Below are positions 18,844 to 35,768 of a stretch of DNA of 42,855 nt, one piece after another. A program made the position numbers and the translations under genes. The stretch comes from an uncultured Spartobacteria bacterium (GTDB taxonomy: Bacteria > Verrucomicrobiota > Verrucomicrobiia > Chthoniobacterales > Terrimicrobiaceae), in assembly GCA_937890535.1 (NCBI GenBank), contig CALBXK010000294.1:1-42855 (forward strand), in the 5' to 3' direction. Position 1 is the stretch's first letter; the number at the start of each line of letters is the position of its first letter. Under the pieces are notes generated by a model, which was given only the letters and a program-made list of their open reading frames with translations, had not been told where the DNA came from and did not search any database.

Positions 18844-18923
18844 AGGCTCGACAATGAACGGCTCAAAAGTCCTCGGCAGGCCCGCCCTGACTGTGGTAGC
18901 TTTTGCCGTTCTACCGTCACAAA

Positions 18924-20063
18924 ATGAGCCGTGCTAACATCAAATCTGATCTGATTGATTGGGCGTGTAACCGTTCCTGCGCGAAATTGGATGTCCTGGA
19001 GAAGCGGTTTCCGAAGCTGCCACAGTGGCTTTCTGGAGATTTGCAGCCGACGATGAACCAGCTAGAGAGTTTTTCAAAAGCAACGCTGACTCCCCTTGGA
19101 TATTTTTTCTTGTCGACCCCGCCTGTTGAGTCTCTTCCGGTCCCGGATTTTCGAACGGTAAAGGGCCGGGCTGTTGCTCGTCCGAGCGCTGCACTGTTAG
19201 AGACGATCTACAGCATGCAACGGAGACAAGACTGGCTCCGAGAATATCTTGAAGAAGAGGGCGAAGACTCTCTGACTATCGTTGGTTCCGTCACCTTGGA
19301 GACTCTGCCAACAGTCGCGGCACGGGCCATCAGAGAAGCCCTTGGAGTCTTGGATGGGTGGGCTGATGAGCACGTCACTTGGGAAAGTGCGCTTATCGGG
19401 CTGCGCAGGGCTGCTGAGGCGTCGGGAATCGTCGTGGTTATCAACGGAGTAGTTGGCAACAACACACATGCGCCTCTCAACGTTCAAGAGTTTCGTGGTT
19501 TCGTGTTAAGTGACAAATTGGCTCCGCTGATTTTCATCAATGGCGCCGACGCCAAGTCGGCCCAGATGTTTACTCTGGCGCACGAAATCGCCCATGTCTG
19601 GCTCGGAAGAGATGGAGTTTTCGATCTGCCGGATTTGGAAGCCTCCGGCGACAAGGTAGAGATGTTTTGCAATCAAGTTGCTGCGGAGGTACTTATTCCT
19701 TCCGTCGAGCTACAGCAGAAGTGGGCATTGGTCTCATCGAGACATCAACCCTTCCAAGCGCTGGCCCGCATGTTCAAAGTCAGTCCCATCGTTGCTGCGC
19801 GACGCGCCTTCGATCTCCAACTGGTAACTCGGGAGGTGTTCTTTGAGTTCATTAAAGGGTATCGGGCCTACGAACTCAGCCGCCCAAAATCTTCTGGAGG
19901 AGATTTCTACCGAACCCAAGAAACACGGATCGGTAGGAGATTCGGGCTCGCAGTCACCAGAGCTGCAAAAGCTGGCCGCCTGCTCTATAGGGATGCATAT
20001 CAACTGACCGGCCTCGCCGGGAAGACGTTCGATCTATACGCCGAAGGCCTCAGAATGACATGA
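18924..20063 (+). CDS. ImmA/IrrE metallo-endopeptidase domain protein with N-terminal HTH-like region
   Basis: MFTLAHEIAHVWLG (HExxH); N-terminal LPQWLSGDLQPTMNQLESFSKATLTPLGYFFL. Confidence 0.88.
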   Translation: MSRANIKSDLIDWACNRSCAKLDVLEKRFPKLPQWLSGDLQPTMNQLESFSKATLTPLGYFFLSTPPVESLPVPDFRTVKGRAVARPSAALLETIYSMQRRQDWLREYLEEEGEDSLTIVGSVTLETLPTVAARAIREALGVLDGWADEHVTWESALIGLRRAAEASGIVVVINGVVGNNTHAPLNVQEFRGFVLSDKLAPLIFINGADAKSAQMFTLAHEIAHVWLGRDGVFDLPDLEASGDKVEMFCNQVAAEVLIPSVELQQKWALVSSRHQPFQALARMFKVSPIVAARRAFDLQLVTREVFFEFIKGYRAYELSRPKSSGGDFYRTQETRIGRRFGLAVTRAAKAGRLLYRDAYQLTGLAGKTFDLYAEGLRMT

Positions 20064-20569
20064 GCGCTCCCGAGAAATATGTCCTAGATGCCAATGTCTT
20101 CATACAGGCGCATCAAAGATTTTACTCTTTCGATATTTGTCCTGGCTATTGGAATGCGCTGCTACACCATCATAGTGAAAATCGTATCTGTAGTGTCGAC
20201 AAGGTACGCGACGAACTGGCTGCCGGGGGAGACATTTTGTGGGATTGGGCAAGGGAGACCTTCGGCACAGATGCTTTCCACGACTCTGCGGTTGCCGCTC
20301 AGGAGTTTGGAGGTATGGCTTCGTGGGTCATGGCTCATCCGCATTATCGTCCTGCCGCCCAATCGAAATTCATGTCCACGGCCGATGGCTGGCTGGCTGC
20401 CTTTGCCAAAGTTCAAGGGCAAATTCTAGTGACCTTAGAAGAATCGGCTGCCGCAGATACCAAGAAACGGGTCCCGCTGGTGAACCTCTGCGAAGCCTTC
20501 GGCGTCCAGACGATCACTCCCTACGAGATGCTGAGGCGTTTGGGCGTCAGGATGACCTGGGCACCGTAA
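20060..20569 (+). CDS. DUF4411-type PIN-like protein
   Basis: KYVLDANVFIQAHQRFYSFDICPGYWNALL; start overlaps the ImmA/IrrE gene stop. Confidence 0.82.
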   Translation: MSAPEKYVLDANVFIQAHQRFYSFDICPGYWNALLHHHSENRICSVDKVRDELAAGGDILWDWARETFGTDAFHDSAVAAQEFGGMASWVMAHPHYRPAAQSKFMSTADGWLAAFAKVQGQILVTLEESAAADTKKRVPLVNLCEAFGVQTITPYEMLRRLGVRMTWAP

Positions 20570-28190: not shown

Positions 28191-29537
28191 ATGAGATTTC
28201 CACTACCTCTGACGGCGAAAATCGCTAAATACATCGTTGGCAAGAAGTTGCAGCGCGTGGATAAATTTGCAACGGTTCTTCAATTGGAGCCCTTGCACAC
28301 CTGCAACCTGACTTGTACCGGCTGTGGTCGGATTCGTGAGTACTCCACCTCACTGAAGGATGTCATGAGTTTGGAGGACTGCCTCGGCGCGGCCACGGAA
28401 TGCAATGCGCCCATGATTTCGATCTGTGGCGGTGAACCGCTCATCTACCCGGACATCGAACCTCTGGTGGAAGGCCTGCTTGAACAGGGACGCATCGTCT
28501 ATATTTGTACGAACGCTCTTTTCATGCGCAAAAAAATGCGTGGATATCTGACGTCCGAATGGAATCGGCTCCGGACGGCCGGGCAGAGCACGGTGGCCAT
28601 GGATGAGATGCTGGAGGTGTTGCGCTCCGAGAAATTGATTACGGCTGCCGAAATTGAGAAAATTCGCGTTCCGGCCTCTGGAACGAAACCCGAAGCGGTG
28701 ATCGCCCCCAATGCGTACCTCTATTGGAATGTCCACCTCGATGGACTCGAGCGCACCCACGACCTCATCGTCGAACGCGAGGGAGTTTTTAAGGAATGCA
28801 TCCTGGCCATGCGCATGGCCAAGATCCTCGGCTACCAGGTCGCCACCAACACCACGATCTACAAGGAAACCGACATGGCCGAGATCGAGCAGATGTATGA
28901 ATACCTCTCCTGGCTCGGCGTGGATGGACACACCATTTCTCCCGGCTATGACTATGACTCCGCCAAGGAGGACATGCGAAAACGCCTCAACCTCGAGCCA
29001 GAAAACTTTTTCCTCACCCGGGCGGCGACGAAGGAAAAATTCAAGGACATCACGGCTTGGAGCGAGCGGTATTCATTTTTTGGCACCCCGATCTATTTTG
29101 AATTTCTGGCGGGCGAGCGGGACCTGACCTGTTCGGCCTGGGCGATTCCCACTCGTAATATCATGGGATGGAAAGCCCCATGTTACCTCATGACCGATGG
29201 GCATTACCCGAGCTATCGGGATCTATTGGAAAAGACCACCTGGGAAGATTATGGCGTGGTGGATGGGGTGGCTCGCGACACGCGCTGCGAGAATTGCATG
29301 GTCCATTGCGGCTATGAACCGACCGCCGCCCTTGGGCGTTGCGCCAAGCCTGGCGACACCTGGAAAAATATCGCATTTAATTTTGGACCCAAGCCGAAGG
29401 TGCGAGAGGCCGGGGCCCAGGTGGCCGCCTTCAATGGAGTGACAGCCGGAAACGGACACAAGACCGGCAAGCCAAAATCCGCGGAACCGGCCGCGAATGT
29501 GGTTAGCGCTGAGAGCGAATTGCAGAGTGCAAAATGA
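28191..29537 (+). CDS. hpnH: adenosyl-hopene transferase (radical SAM)
   Basis: CNLTCTGCG (CxxxCxxC), SICGGEPLIYPDIEPL, WAIPTRNIMGWKAPCYLMTDGH, CENCMVHCGYE. Confidence 0.93.
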   Translation: MRFPLPLTAKIAKYIVGKKLQRVDKFATVLQLEPLHTCNLTCTGCGRIREYSTSLKDVMSLEDCLGAATECNAPMISICGGEPLIYPDIEPLVEGLLEQGRIVYICTNALFMRKKMRGYLTSEWNRLRTAGQSTVAMDEMLEVLRSEKLITAAEIEKIRVPASGTKPEAVIAPNAYLYWNVHLDGLERTHDLIVEREGVFKECILAMRMAKILGYQVATNTTIYKETDMAEIEQMYEYLSWLGVDGHTISPGYDYDSAKEDMRKRLNLEPENFFLTRAATKEKFKDITAWSERYSFFGTPIYFEFLAGERDLTCSAWAIPTRNIMGWKAPCYLMTDGHYPSYRDLLEKTTWEDYGVVDGVARDTRCENCMVHCGYEPTAALGRCAKPGDTWKNIAFNFGPKPKVREAGAQVAAFNGVTAGNGHKTGKPKSAEPAANVVSAESELQSAK

Positions 29538-31465
29538 ATCCGGCTTCCGCCAGAGTCCTGCCTTTCGAAGCTCCGAAAGCGTCCCTGGAGGAAGCGATTG
29601 CTCAGGCGCAGGAAAACCTTCTTCACCTCCAGAAGCCTGACGGACATTGGGAGGGCGAACTTCTGGTCGATGCCACTCTTTGCGCCGACTATGTCCTCTA
29701 CATGCATTGGTGCGGGAAGGTGGATTCCGAGCTGGAGGCGAAATGCGTGGCCCACATCCGCCGCCGTCAACTGGCTGATGGAGGGTGGAATATTTTCATT
29801 GGGGGGCCGAGTGAGATCAACGCTTCGGTGAAGGCCTATTTCGCGATGAAGCTGGCTGGCGACTCCCCGAGCGCGCCCTGGATGAGCGAGGCCCGGGCCA
29901 ATATCCTGCGACTCGGCGGCATCCCCCAACTCAACACCTTTGCCAAACTCTACCTCGCCCTTTTGGGCCAGTTTCCCTGGAAGGATCTTCCCACCATCCC
30001 ACCAGAAATTTTCCTCTTTCCCAAATGGTTCGTTTTCAATCTCTACGAAATGTCGTCGTGGAGCCGCACCATCATCGCGCCCCTTGCGATTCTTAACCAT
30101 TTCAAGCCGGTCCGGAACCTGCCCGCTGACAAACACCTGCACGAACTCTATCCGGCGGGTTTGGAGAATACGGACCTGTCGCTCAAGAAAGACCCTCGAT
30201 TTTGGGCCTGGAAGAATTTCTTTTTGCGCTGCGATCGGTATCTAAAAATCTACGACCGGCTGCCGGTGCATCCGCTACGGCACCGGGCTCTCAAAGCGGT
30301 GGAACGATGGATGATCCGCCGCATGGGTGAGGGCAGTGAGGGTCTCAGCGCGATCTTTCCCGCCATGCTCAATGCCATGATGGCCCTGCGGGTTCTCGGT
30401 TATCGCGACGACCACCCGCTGGTTATGAAGGCCGACCGCGATTTTTCAGGATTGTTCGTAGAGGATCCCGAGGATTTTCGTATCCAGCCCTGCCTTTCCC
30501 CGGTCTGGGACACCGCCATCACGACCATTGCCCTCGCGGAATCTGGCTTGCAGGAACATCCCGCCCTGGATCGGGCCGCGACCTGGCTGGAAAAAAAGGA
30601 AATCCGATTTGAGGCCGACTGGGCCGTCCACGTGCCAGGTGTCGAAGCGAGCGGTTGGGCCTTTGAACACGAGAACAAATTTTATCCGGACACGGACGAT
30701 ACCATGATGGTCCTGATGGCGCTGCGGCATGTCAAAGCCCGGGACACCTATACCCGCTCGGTCCAGTTCGATCGGGCCCTCAAATGGTTGTTGGCCTTTC
30801 AGGACCGCGACGGCGGTTGGGCGGCCTTTGATAAGGGGGTCACCGCCTCATGGCTGGAACACGTGCCCTTTGCGGACCACAACGCCATCATTGATCCCAC
30901 CTGCTCGGATTTGACCGGTCGGGTCTTGGAATTGTTGGGCCTGGTCGGCACCGACCGTGAGAGCCTGATCGTGCGGCGGGCCGTCGCCATGATTCGTCGC
31001 ACCCAGGAGGCGGATGGTTCGTGGTATGGACGCTGGGGCGTCAACTACATTTACGGCACCTGGCAGGTCCTGCGCGGCCTGGCGGCGATTGGCGAAAACA
31101 TGGATCAGGAATGGATTCGCCGGGGCCGGGACTGGCTGGAGAGTTGCCAGAACGAGGACGGCGGCTGGGGCGAAACCTGTGAGTCTTATAACTTTCCCGC
31201 CCTTAAGGGCCGCGGTCCCAGCACCGCCAGCCAGACAGCCTGGGCCTTGATGGGGCTCTGCGCGTGCGGCAGTCCGAATCGCGAGTCCATCACTGATGGC
31301 ATCGATTACCTTGTTCGCACTCAGGAAGCGGACGGATCATGGACCGAAGAGCACACCACCGGCACCGGATTCCCCTGCGTCTTCTATCTCAAATACGACA
31401 TGTATCGTCTCCACTTTCCCCTCCTGGCCCTCGCGACCTTTCGGCGACTGGCTGCGCCCGAGTGA
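29534..31465 (+). CDS. shc: squalene-hopene cyclase
   Basis: DTDDTMM catalytic motif; multiple QW repeats such as QEADGSWYGRWGVNYIYGTWQ and QNEDGGWGE; ATGA overlap with hpnH. Confidence 0.96.
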   Translation: MNPASARVLPFEAPKASLEEAIAQAQENLLHLQKPDGHWEGELLVDATLCADYVLYMHWCGKVDSELEAKCVAHIRRRQLADGGWNIFIGGPSEINASVKAYFAMKLAGDSPSAPWMSEARANILRLGGIPQLNTFAKLYLALLGQFPWKDLPTIPPEIFLFPKWFVFNLYEMSSWSRTIIAPLAILNHFKPVRNLPADKHLHELYPAGLENTDLSLKKDPRFWAWKNFFLRCDRYLKIYDRLPVHPLRHRALKAVERWMIRRMGEGSEGLSAIFPAMLNAMMALRVLGYRDDHPLVMKADRDFSGLFVEDPEDFRIQPCLSPVWDTAITTIALAESGLQEHPALDRAATWLEKKEIRFEADWAVHVPGVEASGWAFEHENKFYPDTDDTMMVLMALRHVKARDTYTRSVQFDRALKWLLAFQDRDGGWAAFDKGVTASWLEHVPFADHNAIIDPTCSDLTGRVLELLGLVGTDRESLIVRRAVAMIRRTQEADGSWYGRWGVNYIYGTWQVLRGLAAIGENMDQEWIRRGRDWLESCQNEDGGWGETCESYNFPALKGRGPSTASQTAWALMGLCACGSPNRESITDGIDYLVRTQEADGSWTEEHTTGTGFPCVFYLKYDMYRLHFPLLALATFRRLAAPE

Positions 31466-31487: not shown

Positions 31488-31519
31488 GCAGTGAAACGGG
31501 GTTCGCTCCCGCGGGGCCG
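31488..31519. repeat. 32-bp direct repeat, copy 1
   Basis: gcagtgaaacggggttcgctcccgcggggccg; 31/32 identical to 33262-33293. Confidence 0.9.
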
Positions 31520-31546
31520 GAATAAAACTGGCAGAGCCAAAGGGGC

Positions 31547-31576
31547 GGTCCGTGCATATATGCATTTGCACGGACC
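31547..31576 (+). terminator. perfect 10-bp stem hairpin, possible terminator
   Basis: ggtccgtgca-tatatgcatt-tgcacggacc; no clear U-tract so mechanism is uncertain. Confidence 0.4.
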
Positions 31577-31668
31577 CCGATTCCCAATTCCAATCAAAAG
31601 CCTACGAAAGCACAAAAAAGGCTCTGCCGGAGCACCGCGCCTTTCAGTGTTAAAAATTTAACCTGTAG

Positions 31669-31839
31669 TCAGGCAGCCCAAGAAAGATCACGCGCAACCT
31701 GACAGGATGTGCGAATGCGCTCCTTGCGCTCCGCTTCAACAGTGCGCAGAAAATTCTCTTTCTGTTTAATGAATGCAGCAAAGCTCCCTGTTGGGCGATT
31801 GCAGTATTCGTCGATCGTTTTCATTTTCTTGGGTTTCAT
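31669..31839 (-). CDS. 56-aa small protein of unknown function, overlapping the zeta-toxin gene end
   Basis: MKPKKMKTIDEYCNRPTGSFAAFIKQKENFLRTVEAERKERIRTSCQVARDLSWAA*; ATGA overlap with the upstream frame; below the ORF track length cut-off. Confidence 0.55.
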   Translation of the reverse strand: MKPKKMKTIDEYCNRPTGSFAAFIKQKENFLRTVEAERKERIRTSCQVARDLSWAA

Positions 31840-32813
31840 TGGAGATTTGTAGAGGCCGATAGCGCCGCATTGAAGTGCTCGTCGTCATGGATAGCAAGCT
31901 CTTTCGATCCGAGTAGTTTTTCAGCGACCACGTAGCAACCATCGCTCGTTTCGACCTGACTTGCAAACACTGTTACCTCGTCGAAGTAAGGAACATACCT
32001 GCGAAACGCCTCCCGGAATCCCCGATGTGAAGCAGGAAGAAAGGCGGGGTTTGGGAACCGCCGCGACAAAGATGCCCGGTGCATTGCCTGGCAAATCGCA
32101 ATTTCCATGGGAGTTAGAACGGCAATCATTCGCAGACTGTATCCGGCTCTCTTGGCAACATTGATTCTTTCCATGGTTTCGCCCTCGTTCGACATCGACG
32201 AATCCCAAATGAAGGAATGCTGATCTGCAACTAGATCCTCGTAAAGCGCGGAAGCCATCACCCGGCACTCGTCTTGAACTACCGCGCTGGCCCTGCCATC
32301 TCCGACACCTTTGATGAGATTATATTAGGGGATAAAATGCTTGAAATTATCTACTCCCACGAGATGCCGCATTTCCACCTGTAGCATGCCGGAGTCCGCC
32401 AACATCTGAAGTTTTACCGTTTTGCCGCTTCCGTAACCCCCACCAGTGAAAATTAAATGTGGCTGTCCGGTAAGTTTGACCGAACAACCCCGCATGACTT
32501 GGTGAACCTGCTCGCGAAAGGCTGTTCTTGTGCAGGAGCTGGAGGGCAGATATCCGGTCTGAATCAGTCGAATGATGAATCGATCATAAAACTGTGTGTA
32601 GTTGCGAAAATCGGCCGTTGGATTGTCGATAGATTTGATAAGAATTGGATCATCGTCAGAAATCACTTCAGGACGTCTCATTTCGGTCCCGCCTCCAGAT
32701 TTTTCAGTCCACCACCAATTCCAATATTCCTCCGTCTGATTGACGTTATCAGCAAGGGTTTCGAAATCGAATTTCTCTCCACCCTTGAGCTTTTCTAGTA
32801 TGGGAAGCTGCAT
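31836..32813 (-). pseudogene. zeta-toxin family protein interrupted by one in-frame TAA
   Basis: 32813-32325 encodes LIFTGGGYGSGKTVKLQ..GVDNFKHFIP*; the same frame continues YNLIKGVGDGRASAVVQDECRVMASALYEDL..FIWDSSMS to 31836. Confidence 0.8.
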
Positions 32814-32854
32814 GGCAGATAGCCAAATGGCAGGAAATCAAGCTCGCGTCCAAC

Positions 32855-33148
32855 CTATTGCACGAAGGAGCTGAACCAACAACTAACGGTTTTCAGGGAA
32901 GATTTGGACTTTACAGCAATCGCCGCATCCACGGCGGAGGAGGGAGAATCCACCGGCGGAATCTCAACCACAGCAGTAGAACGGAACTCGTCGCCGTCCT
33001 CATTGCCCCAAGCGTGGCAGCGTCTGGCCTTGGGGTGTCCCACAAGGTCGAATATCTCCACCTCCCCCTCCCATGTTGTCCGAATCTGGTTCACTTCAAA
33101 AGTGCGCCCCAAGAAATACGGGGTAAGGCCAGAAGAGCCTTTATTCAT
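32855..33148 (-). CDS. 98-aa or shorter protein of unknown function upstream of the zeta gene
   Basis: MNKGSSGLTPYFLGRTFEVNQIRTTWEGEVEIFDLVGHPKARRCHAWGNEDGDEFRSTAVVEIPPVDSPSSAVDAAIAVKSKS. Confidence 0.6.
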   Translation of the reverse strand: MNKGSSGLTPYFLGRTFEVNQIRTTWEGEVEIFDLVGHPKARRCHAWGNEDGDEFRSTAVVEIPPVDSPSSAVDAAIAVKSKSSLKTVSCWFSSFVQ

Positions 33149-33261
33149 GCGGATCCACTCATGATTTGGAGCAAGCCGACACCCGGGATTATCCCTCCGC
33201 TCCGCTTCGGGCTCTGCTTTTTGGCTTCGCCTTTCGGTTCCGGCTCGCTTCGCTCGCCTAG

Positions 33262-33293
33262 GCAGTGAACCGGGGTTCGCTCCCGCGGGGCCG
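33262..33293. repeat. 32-bp direct repeat, copy 2, just past the tRNA-Thr 3' end
   Basis: gcagtgaaccggggttcgctcccgcggggccg. Confidence 0.9.
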
Positions 33294-33297
33294 CAAA

Positions 33298-33369
33298 AGC
33301 CGGCACCCGGGATCGAACCGGGGACCGACGGTTTACAAAACCGTTGCTCTACCGCTGAGCTATACCGGC
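33298..33369 (-). tRNA. tRNA-Thr (anticodon UGU)
   Basis: Reverse complement folds as GCCGGTA/TGCCGGC acceptor, GCTC-AGCGGTA-GAGC D-arm, ACGGT-TTTGTAA-ACCGT anticodon arm, CCCGG-TTCGATC-CCGGG T-arm; 72 nt. Confidence 0.96.
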
Positions 33370-33385: not shown

Positions 33386-33598
33386 TGGCTGAAACTTGCT
33401 CGCCATAAGAGCGGCAGATACTACGCGCGCCTTTACCTGAATGGCAAAGAAATTTGGAAAAGTCTCAAAATCTCTCATTTCTCTGTGGCCGAAGCCCGGC
33501 TGGCGGAAAAGCTCAAAGAACACAGGGAGCGCAAGGGCAAGGAGATTGATTCATCCAATGCCAAGATGACTTTCGGAGATGCCGGCACCCTCAATTGA
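33386..33598 (+). pseudogene. N-terminal fragment of a tyrosine recombinase/phage integrase
   Basis: Frame WLKLARHKSGRYYARLYLNGKEIWKSLKISHFSVAEARLAEKLKEHRERKGKEIDSSNAKMTFGDAGTLN*; no start codon. Confidence 0.7.
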
Positions 33599-33811: not shown

Positions 33812-34942
33812 ATGCTCTTTGATTCCAAATGGAACTGGCAATTAGACGACTGGCCGCGATTCCGATATGACGGGGCAAAATTGGCGCAATTGGAAGCTGA
33901 TTTTCTGCGTCAGTCGGGCGTATTTATCGGCGCTGTTCGGCATGTCGCCGAAGGAGAAAAAGAGCAGATCACCGTTGACCTCATCAGTGACGAGGCGCTC
34001 TACACTTCCGAGATCGAAGGCGAGATTCTAAACCGGGACAGCCTTCAGTCTTCCATCCGCCGCAATCTGGGTCTGACAACCGACAACCGACGGATTCCGC
34101 CTGCCGAGCAGGGAATCTCGGACATGATGATCGATCTTTACCGCAATTTCAGTACGCCGCTGTCGGATGGTCTGTTGTTCCGCTGGCATGAAATGCTGAT
34201 GAGCGGCAGGCGCGATCTGAAAAATATCGGCAACTACCGGAACGGCGAAGAGCCGATGCAGATAGTCTCAGGCCCGATTCATGAGCCAAAAGTGCATTTT
34301 GAAGCGCCGCCATCTCCGTCCATGCCATCCGAAATGGCACGGTTCATCGAGTGGTTTAACGAAACTTCCCCGTCTGGGAAAAAACCGCTTCCCACGCTTG
34401 CACGGGCGAGTCTTGCCCATTGGCATTTCGTAAGTATTCACCCGTTTGAAGATGGCAACGGACGCATCGCCCGTGCCCTGGCCGAAAAATCGCTTTCACA
34501 AAATTTAGGCCATCCTACCCTGATCGCGCTTTCCAAAACCATTAATAGCAAGCGCAAAACCTACTATGATGTCCTGGAACACGGGAACCGGAACAACGAA
34601 ATATCTGCTTGGTTGCTTTACTTTGCGCAGGCCATTTTGGATGCGCAAAACCTCGCGCAACGCGCAGTTGATTTTCTCATCGAAAAAACCAAGTTTTTCG
34701 ACCGGCTGCGCAGTCAACTCAATCCCCGCCAGGAAAAAGTCCTCTTGCGGATGTTCCGCGAAGGCCCTGACGGATTCAAGGGTGGCTTGAGCGCGGAAAA
34801 CTATATCAGACTTACTGGCACATCCCGCGCCACAGCCACGCGTGACCTGCAAGATTTGGTAACAAAAAATGCCATGAGCAAAACCGGCGCACGAAAAAGC
34901 ACCCGCTATTATTTGCAACTTTCGGGTATGCGCCCTTTGTAA
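33812..34942 (+). CDS. Fic family protein with DUF4172-like N-terminus and C-terminal winged-helix region
   Basis: HPFEDGNGRIAR Fic motif; TSEIEGE inhibitory-helix motif; C-terminal YIRLTGTSRATATRDLQDLV. Confidence 0.93.
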   Translation: MLFDSKWNWQLDDWPRFRYDGAKLAQLEADFLRQSGVFIGAVRHVAEGEKEQITVDLISDEALYTSEIEGEILNRDSLQSSIRRNLGLTTDNRRIPPAEQGISDMMIDLYRNFSTPLSDGLLFRWHEMLMSGRRDLKNIGNYRNGEEPMQIVSGPIHEPKVHFEAPPSPSMPSEMARFIEWFNETSPSGKKPLPTLARASLAHWHFVSIHPFEDGNGRIARALAEKSLSQNLGHPTLIALSKTINSKRKTYYDVLEHGNRNNEISAWLLYFAQAILDAQNLAQRAVDFLIEKTKFFDRLRSQLNPRQEKVLLRMFREGPDGFKGGLSAENYIRLTGTSRATATRDLQDLVTKNAMSKTGARKSTRYYLQLSGMRPL

Positions 34943-35374: not shown

Positions 35375-35484
35375 TTACCCTAAAAACGGGAATAAAACCA
35401 CTAATGGACACTAATAGACACCTGCAACGGCTGCAAAGCAACGGCCAGGCTTTCAAATGGAAAGCGACTTACAAAAGCAGAAAC
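35375..35484 (+). repeat. dispersed ~110-bp repeat, copy B
   Basis: Inverted copy of 10101-10210. Confidence 0.85.
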
Positions 35485-35540
35485 ATTCACCCTACGGAGG
35501 ATGGATCCTCTTCAGGTATCTTCTTTAAAATCCGTGTTTT

Positions 35541-35562
35541 ATTTGAAAGCCTGGCCGTTGCT
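35541..35562 (-). repeat. 22-bp inverted copy of 35437-35458
   Basis: atttgaaagcctggccgttgct is the exact reverse complement of agcaacggccaggctttcaaat. Confidence 0.9.
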
Positions 35563-35768
35563 GCGGGCTGCAAGCCGAAGGCTCCAGGCTTTCAAAATTT
35601 CCCAATGGAAATAGCGAGGAGTGTGTCCACGCTGTCGCTTTCCGCTTGCCCGGAATATGAGACGTACGAGCCCGCCCAGCGAACTTCCCGTCCCTCCTCT
35701 CTCCAAAATCGACGCCTTGGGGTCGAAAAGAGATTTTCGCGGTCGGAAAAAACCGCCAGTCTCAGCCC

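What the first reader, a model, noticed from the sequence alone, without database searches (positions are those of the whole stretch)
31488..33369. Candidate uncharacterised zeta-toxin cassette beside tRNA-Thr
Seen: minus-strand order tRNA-Thr, 98-aa unknown ORF, 41-bp gap, zeta-toxin gene, ATGA-overlapping 56-aa ORF, all between two 32-bp direct repeats. Known: classical zeta toxins pair with an upstream epsilon antitoxin. Inference: neither small ORF looks like epsilon to me, so one of them may be a non-canonical antitoxin or accessory protein.
Basis: partly seen in the sequence, partly recalled or inferred. Interest (0 to 1): 0.72.

Follow-up and report, generated by a model that had tools for sequence, protein, structure and literature searches.

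The report
Zeta toxin with downstream mini-partner
Next to a tRNA gene in a verrucomicrobial genome sits a broken toxin gene followed by a tiny, still intact gene, and the same two genes occur intact side by side in two distantly related bacteria, which makes the tiny gene a good candidate for a new kind of antidote to this toxin family.

Summary
In detail: on the minus strand tRNA-Thr, a 97-residue ORF, a zeta-toxin frame (Pfam Zeta_toxin 3.8e-22 when read through) with one in-frame TAA, and an ATGA-overlapping 56-residue ORF, between two near-identical repeats. The interpretation splits. The upstream 97-residue ORF is not a zeta partner: it belongs to a small-protein family dispersed through the order, in 19 of 40 loci directly behind an IS1-like transposase, and was not found beside the two true relatives of this zeta. 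The downstream 56-residue ORF is real: the only two full-length zeta relatives found (an Akkermansiaceae MAG and genome G634, both intact, 35-39% identical) carry homologous 58-61-residue ORFs immediately downstream, in G634 again with an ATGA overlap. So this is a rare, probably mobile two-gene cassette, zeta plus mini-partner, in Verrucomicrobiota; the window copy is decaying at a tRNA-Thr integration site. The best reading is a toxin-antitoxin pair with toxin first and a one-long-helix antitoxin second, organised like AvrRxo1:Arc1 but unlike Arc1 in size and motif. Neutralisation is untested; a zeta held by its own N-terminal region, with an accessory mini-protein, is the main rival.

The parts
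31836..32813 (-). zeta-toxin gene, broken by one in-frame TAA (32325-32327); about 110-residue N-terminal region, then P-loop GGGYGSGKT and zeta core
   Evidence: Pfam PF06414 3.8e-22 read through; full-length intact relatives L155 and L178; fold of L155 closest to 1gvn zeta, PezT, AvrRxo1
32325..32327 (-). in-frame TAA stop (codon 163) that splits the zeta frame
   Evidence: both relatives are uninterrupted
31669..31839 (-). 56-aa downstream mini-partner, candidate antitoxin, start overlaps zeta stop (ATGA); short helix 9-13 and one long helix 20-55 predicted
   Evidence: homologues directly downstream of zeta in L155 and L178, alignment scores 55-89 against shuffle means of about 20-23; profile hits only these places among 22,710 ORFs; fold
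32855..33148 (-). 97-residue ORF, member of a dispersed small-protein family found behind IS1-like transposases; judged not part of the zeta cassette
33298..33369 (-). tRNA-Thr (TGT), probable integration site
   Evidence: ARAGORN
33262..33296 (.). direct repeat, copy adjoining tRNA-Thr 3' end (older copy: a similar sequence also lies behind tRNA-Thr in sister genome G079)
31488..31522 (.). direct repeat, distal copy; outer edge of the inserted segment next to squalene-hopene cyclase
33173..33189 (.). 17-nt copy (16/17) of the tRNA-Thr 3' end, a second attachment-site-like scar
33398..33595 (+). decayed integrase fragment on the 5' side of the tRNA
   Evidence: PHROG integrase family phrog_1, E=7e-4

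Best explanation
The locus is the decaying copy of a rare, probably horizontally moving two-gene toxin-antitoxin cassette: a zeta-family kinase gene followed, through an ATGA overlap, by a gene for a helical protein of 56-61 residues. Inferred mechanism: the kinase phosphorylates a nucleotide-linked metabolite (UDP-sugar or NAD type) and stops growth; the small protein, co-translated behind it, binds the kinase through one long helix and blocks it. The cassette was inserted beside tRNA-Thr. In this genome the toxin has since gained a stop codon while the small gene stayed intact. Shown here: zeta identity, conserved pairing and order in three genomes, intact relatives, tRNA-linked repeats. Inferred: toxicity, substrate, binding and neutralisation.
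For: Full-length zeta relatives sharing the unusual N-terminal region: L155, Akkermansiaceae MAG JANXMQ010000254.1, 35% identity, E=5e-47, and L178, genome G634 of another family, E=3.8e-87. Both are intact. Each is followed by a homologue of the 56-aa ORF: G634 with the same ATGA overlap, L155 136 nt behind. Pairwise scores 55, 89 and 70 against the best of 2000 shuffles of 44, 41 and 51. A profile of the three finds no other significant hit among 22,710 ORFs. P-loop, the zeta Asp and two Arg are invariant across distant zetas, and the fold search ranks 1gvn zeta, PezT and AvrRxo1 first. The G+C of the pair (49.4%) is well below the window (57.0%), as also in G634 (48.6 vs 53.0). Direct repeats unique to this place and to tRNA-Thr of the sister genome. 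No other candidate partner is shared by the three loci.
Against: Only three loci are known, and only two of them show the overlap. No toxicity or neutralisation data. The mini-protein has no match to any known antitoxin. A single predicted helix is a common default for charged sequences, and its alignment had two rows. The long N-terminal region of the zeta could itself be the inhibitor, as in EzeT (PMC4803016).
Confidence: 0.55

Rival explanations
1. The zeta is a one-chain system of the EzeT type: its about 110-residue N-terminal region holds the kinase in check, and the downstream mini-protein is an accessory factor (chaperone, regulator or second inhibitor).
For: The P-loop starts near residue 124 rather than near 30-46 as in plasmid zetas, and the N-terminal region is conserved in all three members. 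EzeT shows that such a region can act as a cis-antitoxin (PMC4803016).
Against: The mini-ORF is also conserved and, in two of three loci, overlaps the zeta stop, which a self-contained protein would not need. The N-terminal region is predicted with low confidence, so no antitoxin fold could be recognised.
Confidence: 0.25
2. It is a diverged AvrRxo1:Arc1 module, a zeta-fold kinase with a downstream three- to four-helix antitoxin.
For: Same gene order (kinase first, short ORF second; PMC4938570); AvrRxo1-ORF1 structures are among the best fold matches, over 256-293 columns. Loss of the toxin with the downstream partner intact is also reported there.
Against: The mini-protein is 56-61 residues, most Arc1-like proteins 81-98, and it lacks the conserved Arc1 motif KExFD(x25-27)(Y/L)ExxYY. 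The family model for this effector group gives only E=0.21, and zeta 1gvn and PezT have better E-values by fold.
Confidence: 0.1
3. The upstream 97-residue ORF is the antitoxin, in the classical position.
For: It lies 41 bp upstream, where epsilon lies. In G193 a 62% identical family member also sits upstream of a zeta-like gene.
Against: That G193 gene matches only positions 95-177 of the zeta profile, and there an IS1-like transposase lies directly upstream. No convincing zeta gene lies near the other 39 family loci; 19 of 40 lie 63-158 nt behind an IS1-like transposase. Neither full-length zeta relative has a homologue nearby, although only 197 bp upstream could be seen in L155.
Confidence: 0.04
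4. The pair is a non-toxic enzyme and its small binding partner (for example a metabolite or nucleic-acid end kinase used in defence), now a pseudogene in this genome.
For: The window copy is broken; polynucleotide kinases also match the fold more weakly.
Against: The zeta profile and zeta/PezT structures match best.
Confidence: 0.06

Closest known systems
epsilon-zeta of pSM19035 and PezAT
   Same: zeta kinase core, P-loop, same fold (1gvn, 2p5t best matches)
   Different: their antitoxin is upstream, larger and contains a three-helix bundle; here the partner is downstream, 56-61 residues, one long helix predicted, no sequence match to any known antitoxin family
Plasmid zeta toxins with an upstream 83-89 aa ORF (Alicycliphilus, Denitratisoma, Rhizobium, pRA2)
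   Same: zeta core with about 20% identity
   Different: upstream small ORF, short N-terminus before the P-loop
AvrRxo1:Arc1
   Same: toxin gene first, short helical protein second; similar fold; toxin lost while the partner stays intact in some strains (PMC4938570)
   Different: most Arc1-like proteins are 81-98 residues with a double-tyrosine motif that is absent here
EzeT of E. coli
   Same: long region before the zeta core
   Different: EzeT is solitary; here a downstream gene is conserved. Direct sequence comparison was not made

Membership tests
Zeta_toxin (PF06414) | profile match above the curated cut-off | tested here: met
   79.1 bits against a cut-off of 22.3 (read through); all three members match
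Zeta_toxin (PF06414) | Walker A lysine and catalytic acidic and arginine residues | tested here: met
   G124, G125, G128, G130, K131, D155, R246, R252 invariant across distant zetas
Zeta_toxin (PF06414) | intact open reading frame in the window | tested here: not met
   in-frame TAA at 32325-32327; intact in L155 and L178
Zeta_toxin (PF06414) | growth arrest by phosphorylating UDP-N-acetylglucosamine | not testable with these tools
   needs expression and assay
epsilon-zeta / PezAT type II system | epsilon- or PezA-like antitoxin directly upstream | tested here: not met
   no Pfam, NCBIfam, PADLOC or PHROG match for the upstream ORF; its family is transposase-linked
AvrRxo1:Arc1 | short ORF directly downstream of the kinase | tested here: met
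   three loci
AvrRxo1:Arc1 | Arc1 motif KExFD(x25-27)(Y/L)ExxYY, mostly 81-98 residues | tested here: not met
   motif absent in all three; 56-61 residues
EzeT-type one-chain system | N-terminal antitoxin domain before the zeta core | tested here: inconclusive
   about 110-residue conserved N-terminal region, modelled with low confidence
Two-gene zeta plus mini-partner cassette (proposed here) | homologous mini-ORF downstream of every full-length relative | tested here: met
   3 of 3 loci

The most novel reading that the evidence does not exclude
Zeta toxins have a second, separately evolved kind of antitoxin: very short single-helix proteins encoded behind the toxin. The verrucomicrobial family is one example; unrelated 44-63 aa ORFs right behind other zeta genes (Rossellomorea, Mannheimia and Rodentibacter, viral contigs, G698) may be further ones that annotation has overlooked.
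Probability: 0.3. Interest if true: 0.72.

Novelty: new variant of a known kind. Interest (0 to 1): 0.52.

Why it matters
Many zeta genes are called solitary because no epsilon or PezA lies upstream. A conserved 56-61 aa partner downstream, short enough to be missed in annotation, would explain some of them, would be among the smallest type II antitoxins, and gives two intact, testable pairs. It would also link the toxin-first order of AvrRxo1:Arc1 to ordinary chromosomal zeta systems.

Tried and rejected
Upstream ORF as antitoxin: rejected. Close relatives of the zeta by single-sequence search of genome and viral contigs, phages and plasmids: none or distant only; the first full-length relative came only with an alignment of distant zetas. 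The mini-ORF in plasmids, viral contigs and the order: none. Arc1 motif in any ORF fetched: none. Terminal inverted repeats around the IS1-like transposase plus small-protein pair: none convincing, so I do not call the small protein part of an insertion sequence. The flanking repeats as a genome-wide repeat: rejected, only two copies. Direct synteny with sister genomes: squalene-hopene cyclase and tRNA-Thr are not neighbours in relatives, so no empty site could be read.

Full report
Setting. The window is one whole contig (C294) of a 3.7-Mb, 410-contig genome. The nearest full-length zeta relative is in an Akkermansiaceae MAG, and I take the genome to be verrucomicrobial (inference from gene content and relatives). 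The finding lies between squalene-hopene cyclase (29534-31465) and a Fic-family gene (33812-34942).

Observation. The zeta frame carries a single in-frame TAA. Read through, it matches Pfam Zeta_toxin at E=3.8e-22, and each half matches alone. The 56-aa ORF starts inside the zeta stop (ATGA).

The repeats. The two 35-bp copies (94% identical) share a core found nowhere else in the genome; the sister genome G079 has it once, directly behind its tRNA-Thr. The tRNA-side copy is therefore probably the older one and the distal copy at 31488 a duplicate, as left by site-specific integration. A 17-nt copy of the tRNA 3' end at 33173-33189 and a decayed integrase fragment on the other side of the tRNA suggest that this tRNA has been an insertion site more than once. 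The zeta and mini genes have 49.4% G+C against 57.0% for the window. That the segment moved by itself is inference; it holds no integrase.

The upstream ORF. Its family has members in 31 of 210 genomes of the order, up to ten in one genome. In 19 of 40 loci examined it lies 63-158 nt behind an IS1-like transposase on the same strand. A zeta-like gene lies near one of the 40, G193, where only part of the zeta profile matches. Neither full-length relative of the window zeta has a homologue nearby, with the limit that only 197 bp upstream are held for L155. I judge this ORF a bystander.

The downstream ORF. No library knows it, and it has no relative elsewhere in the order. But once full-length relatives of the zeta were found (L155, L178 of G634; 35 and 39% identity, including the N-terminal region), each had a short ORF right behind it, of 61 and 58 residues, clearly homologous to the 56-aa ORF. 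Pairwise scores of 55-89 stand against shuffle means of 20-23 and maxima of 41-51. A profile of the three finds nothing else significant among 22,710 ORFs from all loci. G634 shows the same ATGA overlap. The order zeta then mini-gene is thus conserved in three genomes while the other neighbours differ. Profile searches of the class, of the order of G634 and of the phylum found no further full-length member, so the cassette is rare and scattered, as mobile genes often are.

Mechanism. The model of the L155 zeta is mostly confident over the core and poor over the N-terminal 100 residues. The best solved matches are zeta of pSM19035, PezT and AvrRxo1. Catalytic landmarks are kept. The mini-protein is modelled as one long helix. 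In epsilon-zeta, the N-terminal part of epsilon blocks the ATP site (PMC4803016); a lone helix doing the same is the simplest reading. It is not shown. The alternative is an EzeT-like protein restrained by its own N-terminal region, with the mini-protein as helper.

Fate in this genome. The zeta is interrupted but the mini-gene is intact. The same pattern, toxin lost and downstream antitoxin kept, is described for avrRxo1:arc1 (PMC4938570). The TAA could also be an assembly error; no reads were available.

Novelty. The zeta is an ordinary member of a known superfamily. The partner is a small-protein family that no library searched here knows, and the toxin-first order with a 56-61 aa partner is not the epsilon-zeta, PezAT or Arc1 arrangement. 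No paper found in the held library describes it, which is not proof of absence. I file it as a new variant of a known kind. Other zeta genes with short ORFs behind them are a lead only; these ORFs are not similar to the one here.

Noticed in passing
L068-L107 (40 loci in the order): Small-protein family of about 80-100 residues (core WEGxVEVFDLxGHPKAKRxYAWxY...AVLEIPPVDSPxxAVKVAIAAK) dispersed in 31 of 210 genomes; 19 of 40 copies lie 63-158 nt behind an IS1-like transposase, without recognisable terminal inverted repeats.
   Followed up: partly
L156, L157, L158, L166, L173, L179: Several other zeta genes, in other phyla and viral contigs too, have a 44-63 aa ORF directly behind or overlapping the zeta stop; not similar to the mini-partner described here.
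   Followed up: partly
window 18903-20569: ATGA-coupled pair of a Peptidase_M78 (IrrE-like) protein and a DUF4411 protein, a toxin-antitoxin-like arrangement.
   Followed up: partly
window 35379-35566: Dispersed DNA repeat with many copies, some nearly identical, in other contigs of the same genome.
   Followed up: no
window 33398-33595: Decayed integrase fragment just 5' of tRNA-Thr.
   Followed up: partly
G685:C19:34845-35408: Zeta-like domain inside a 4600-residue open frame.
   Followed up: no
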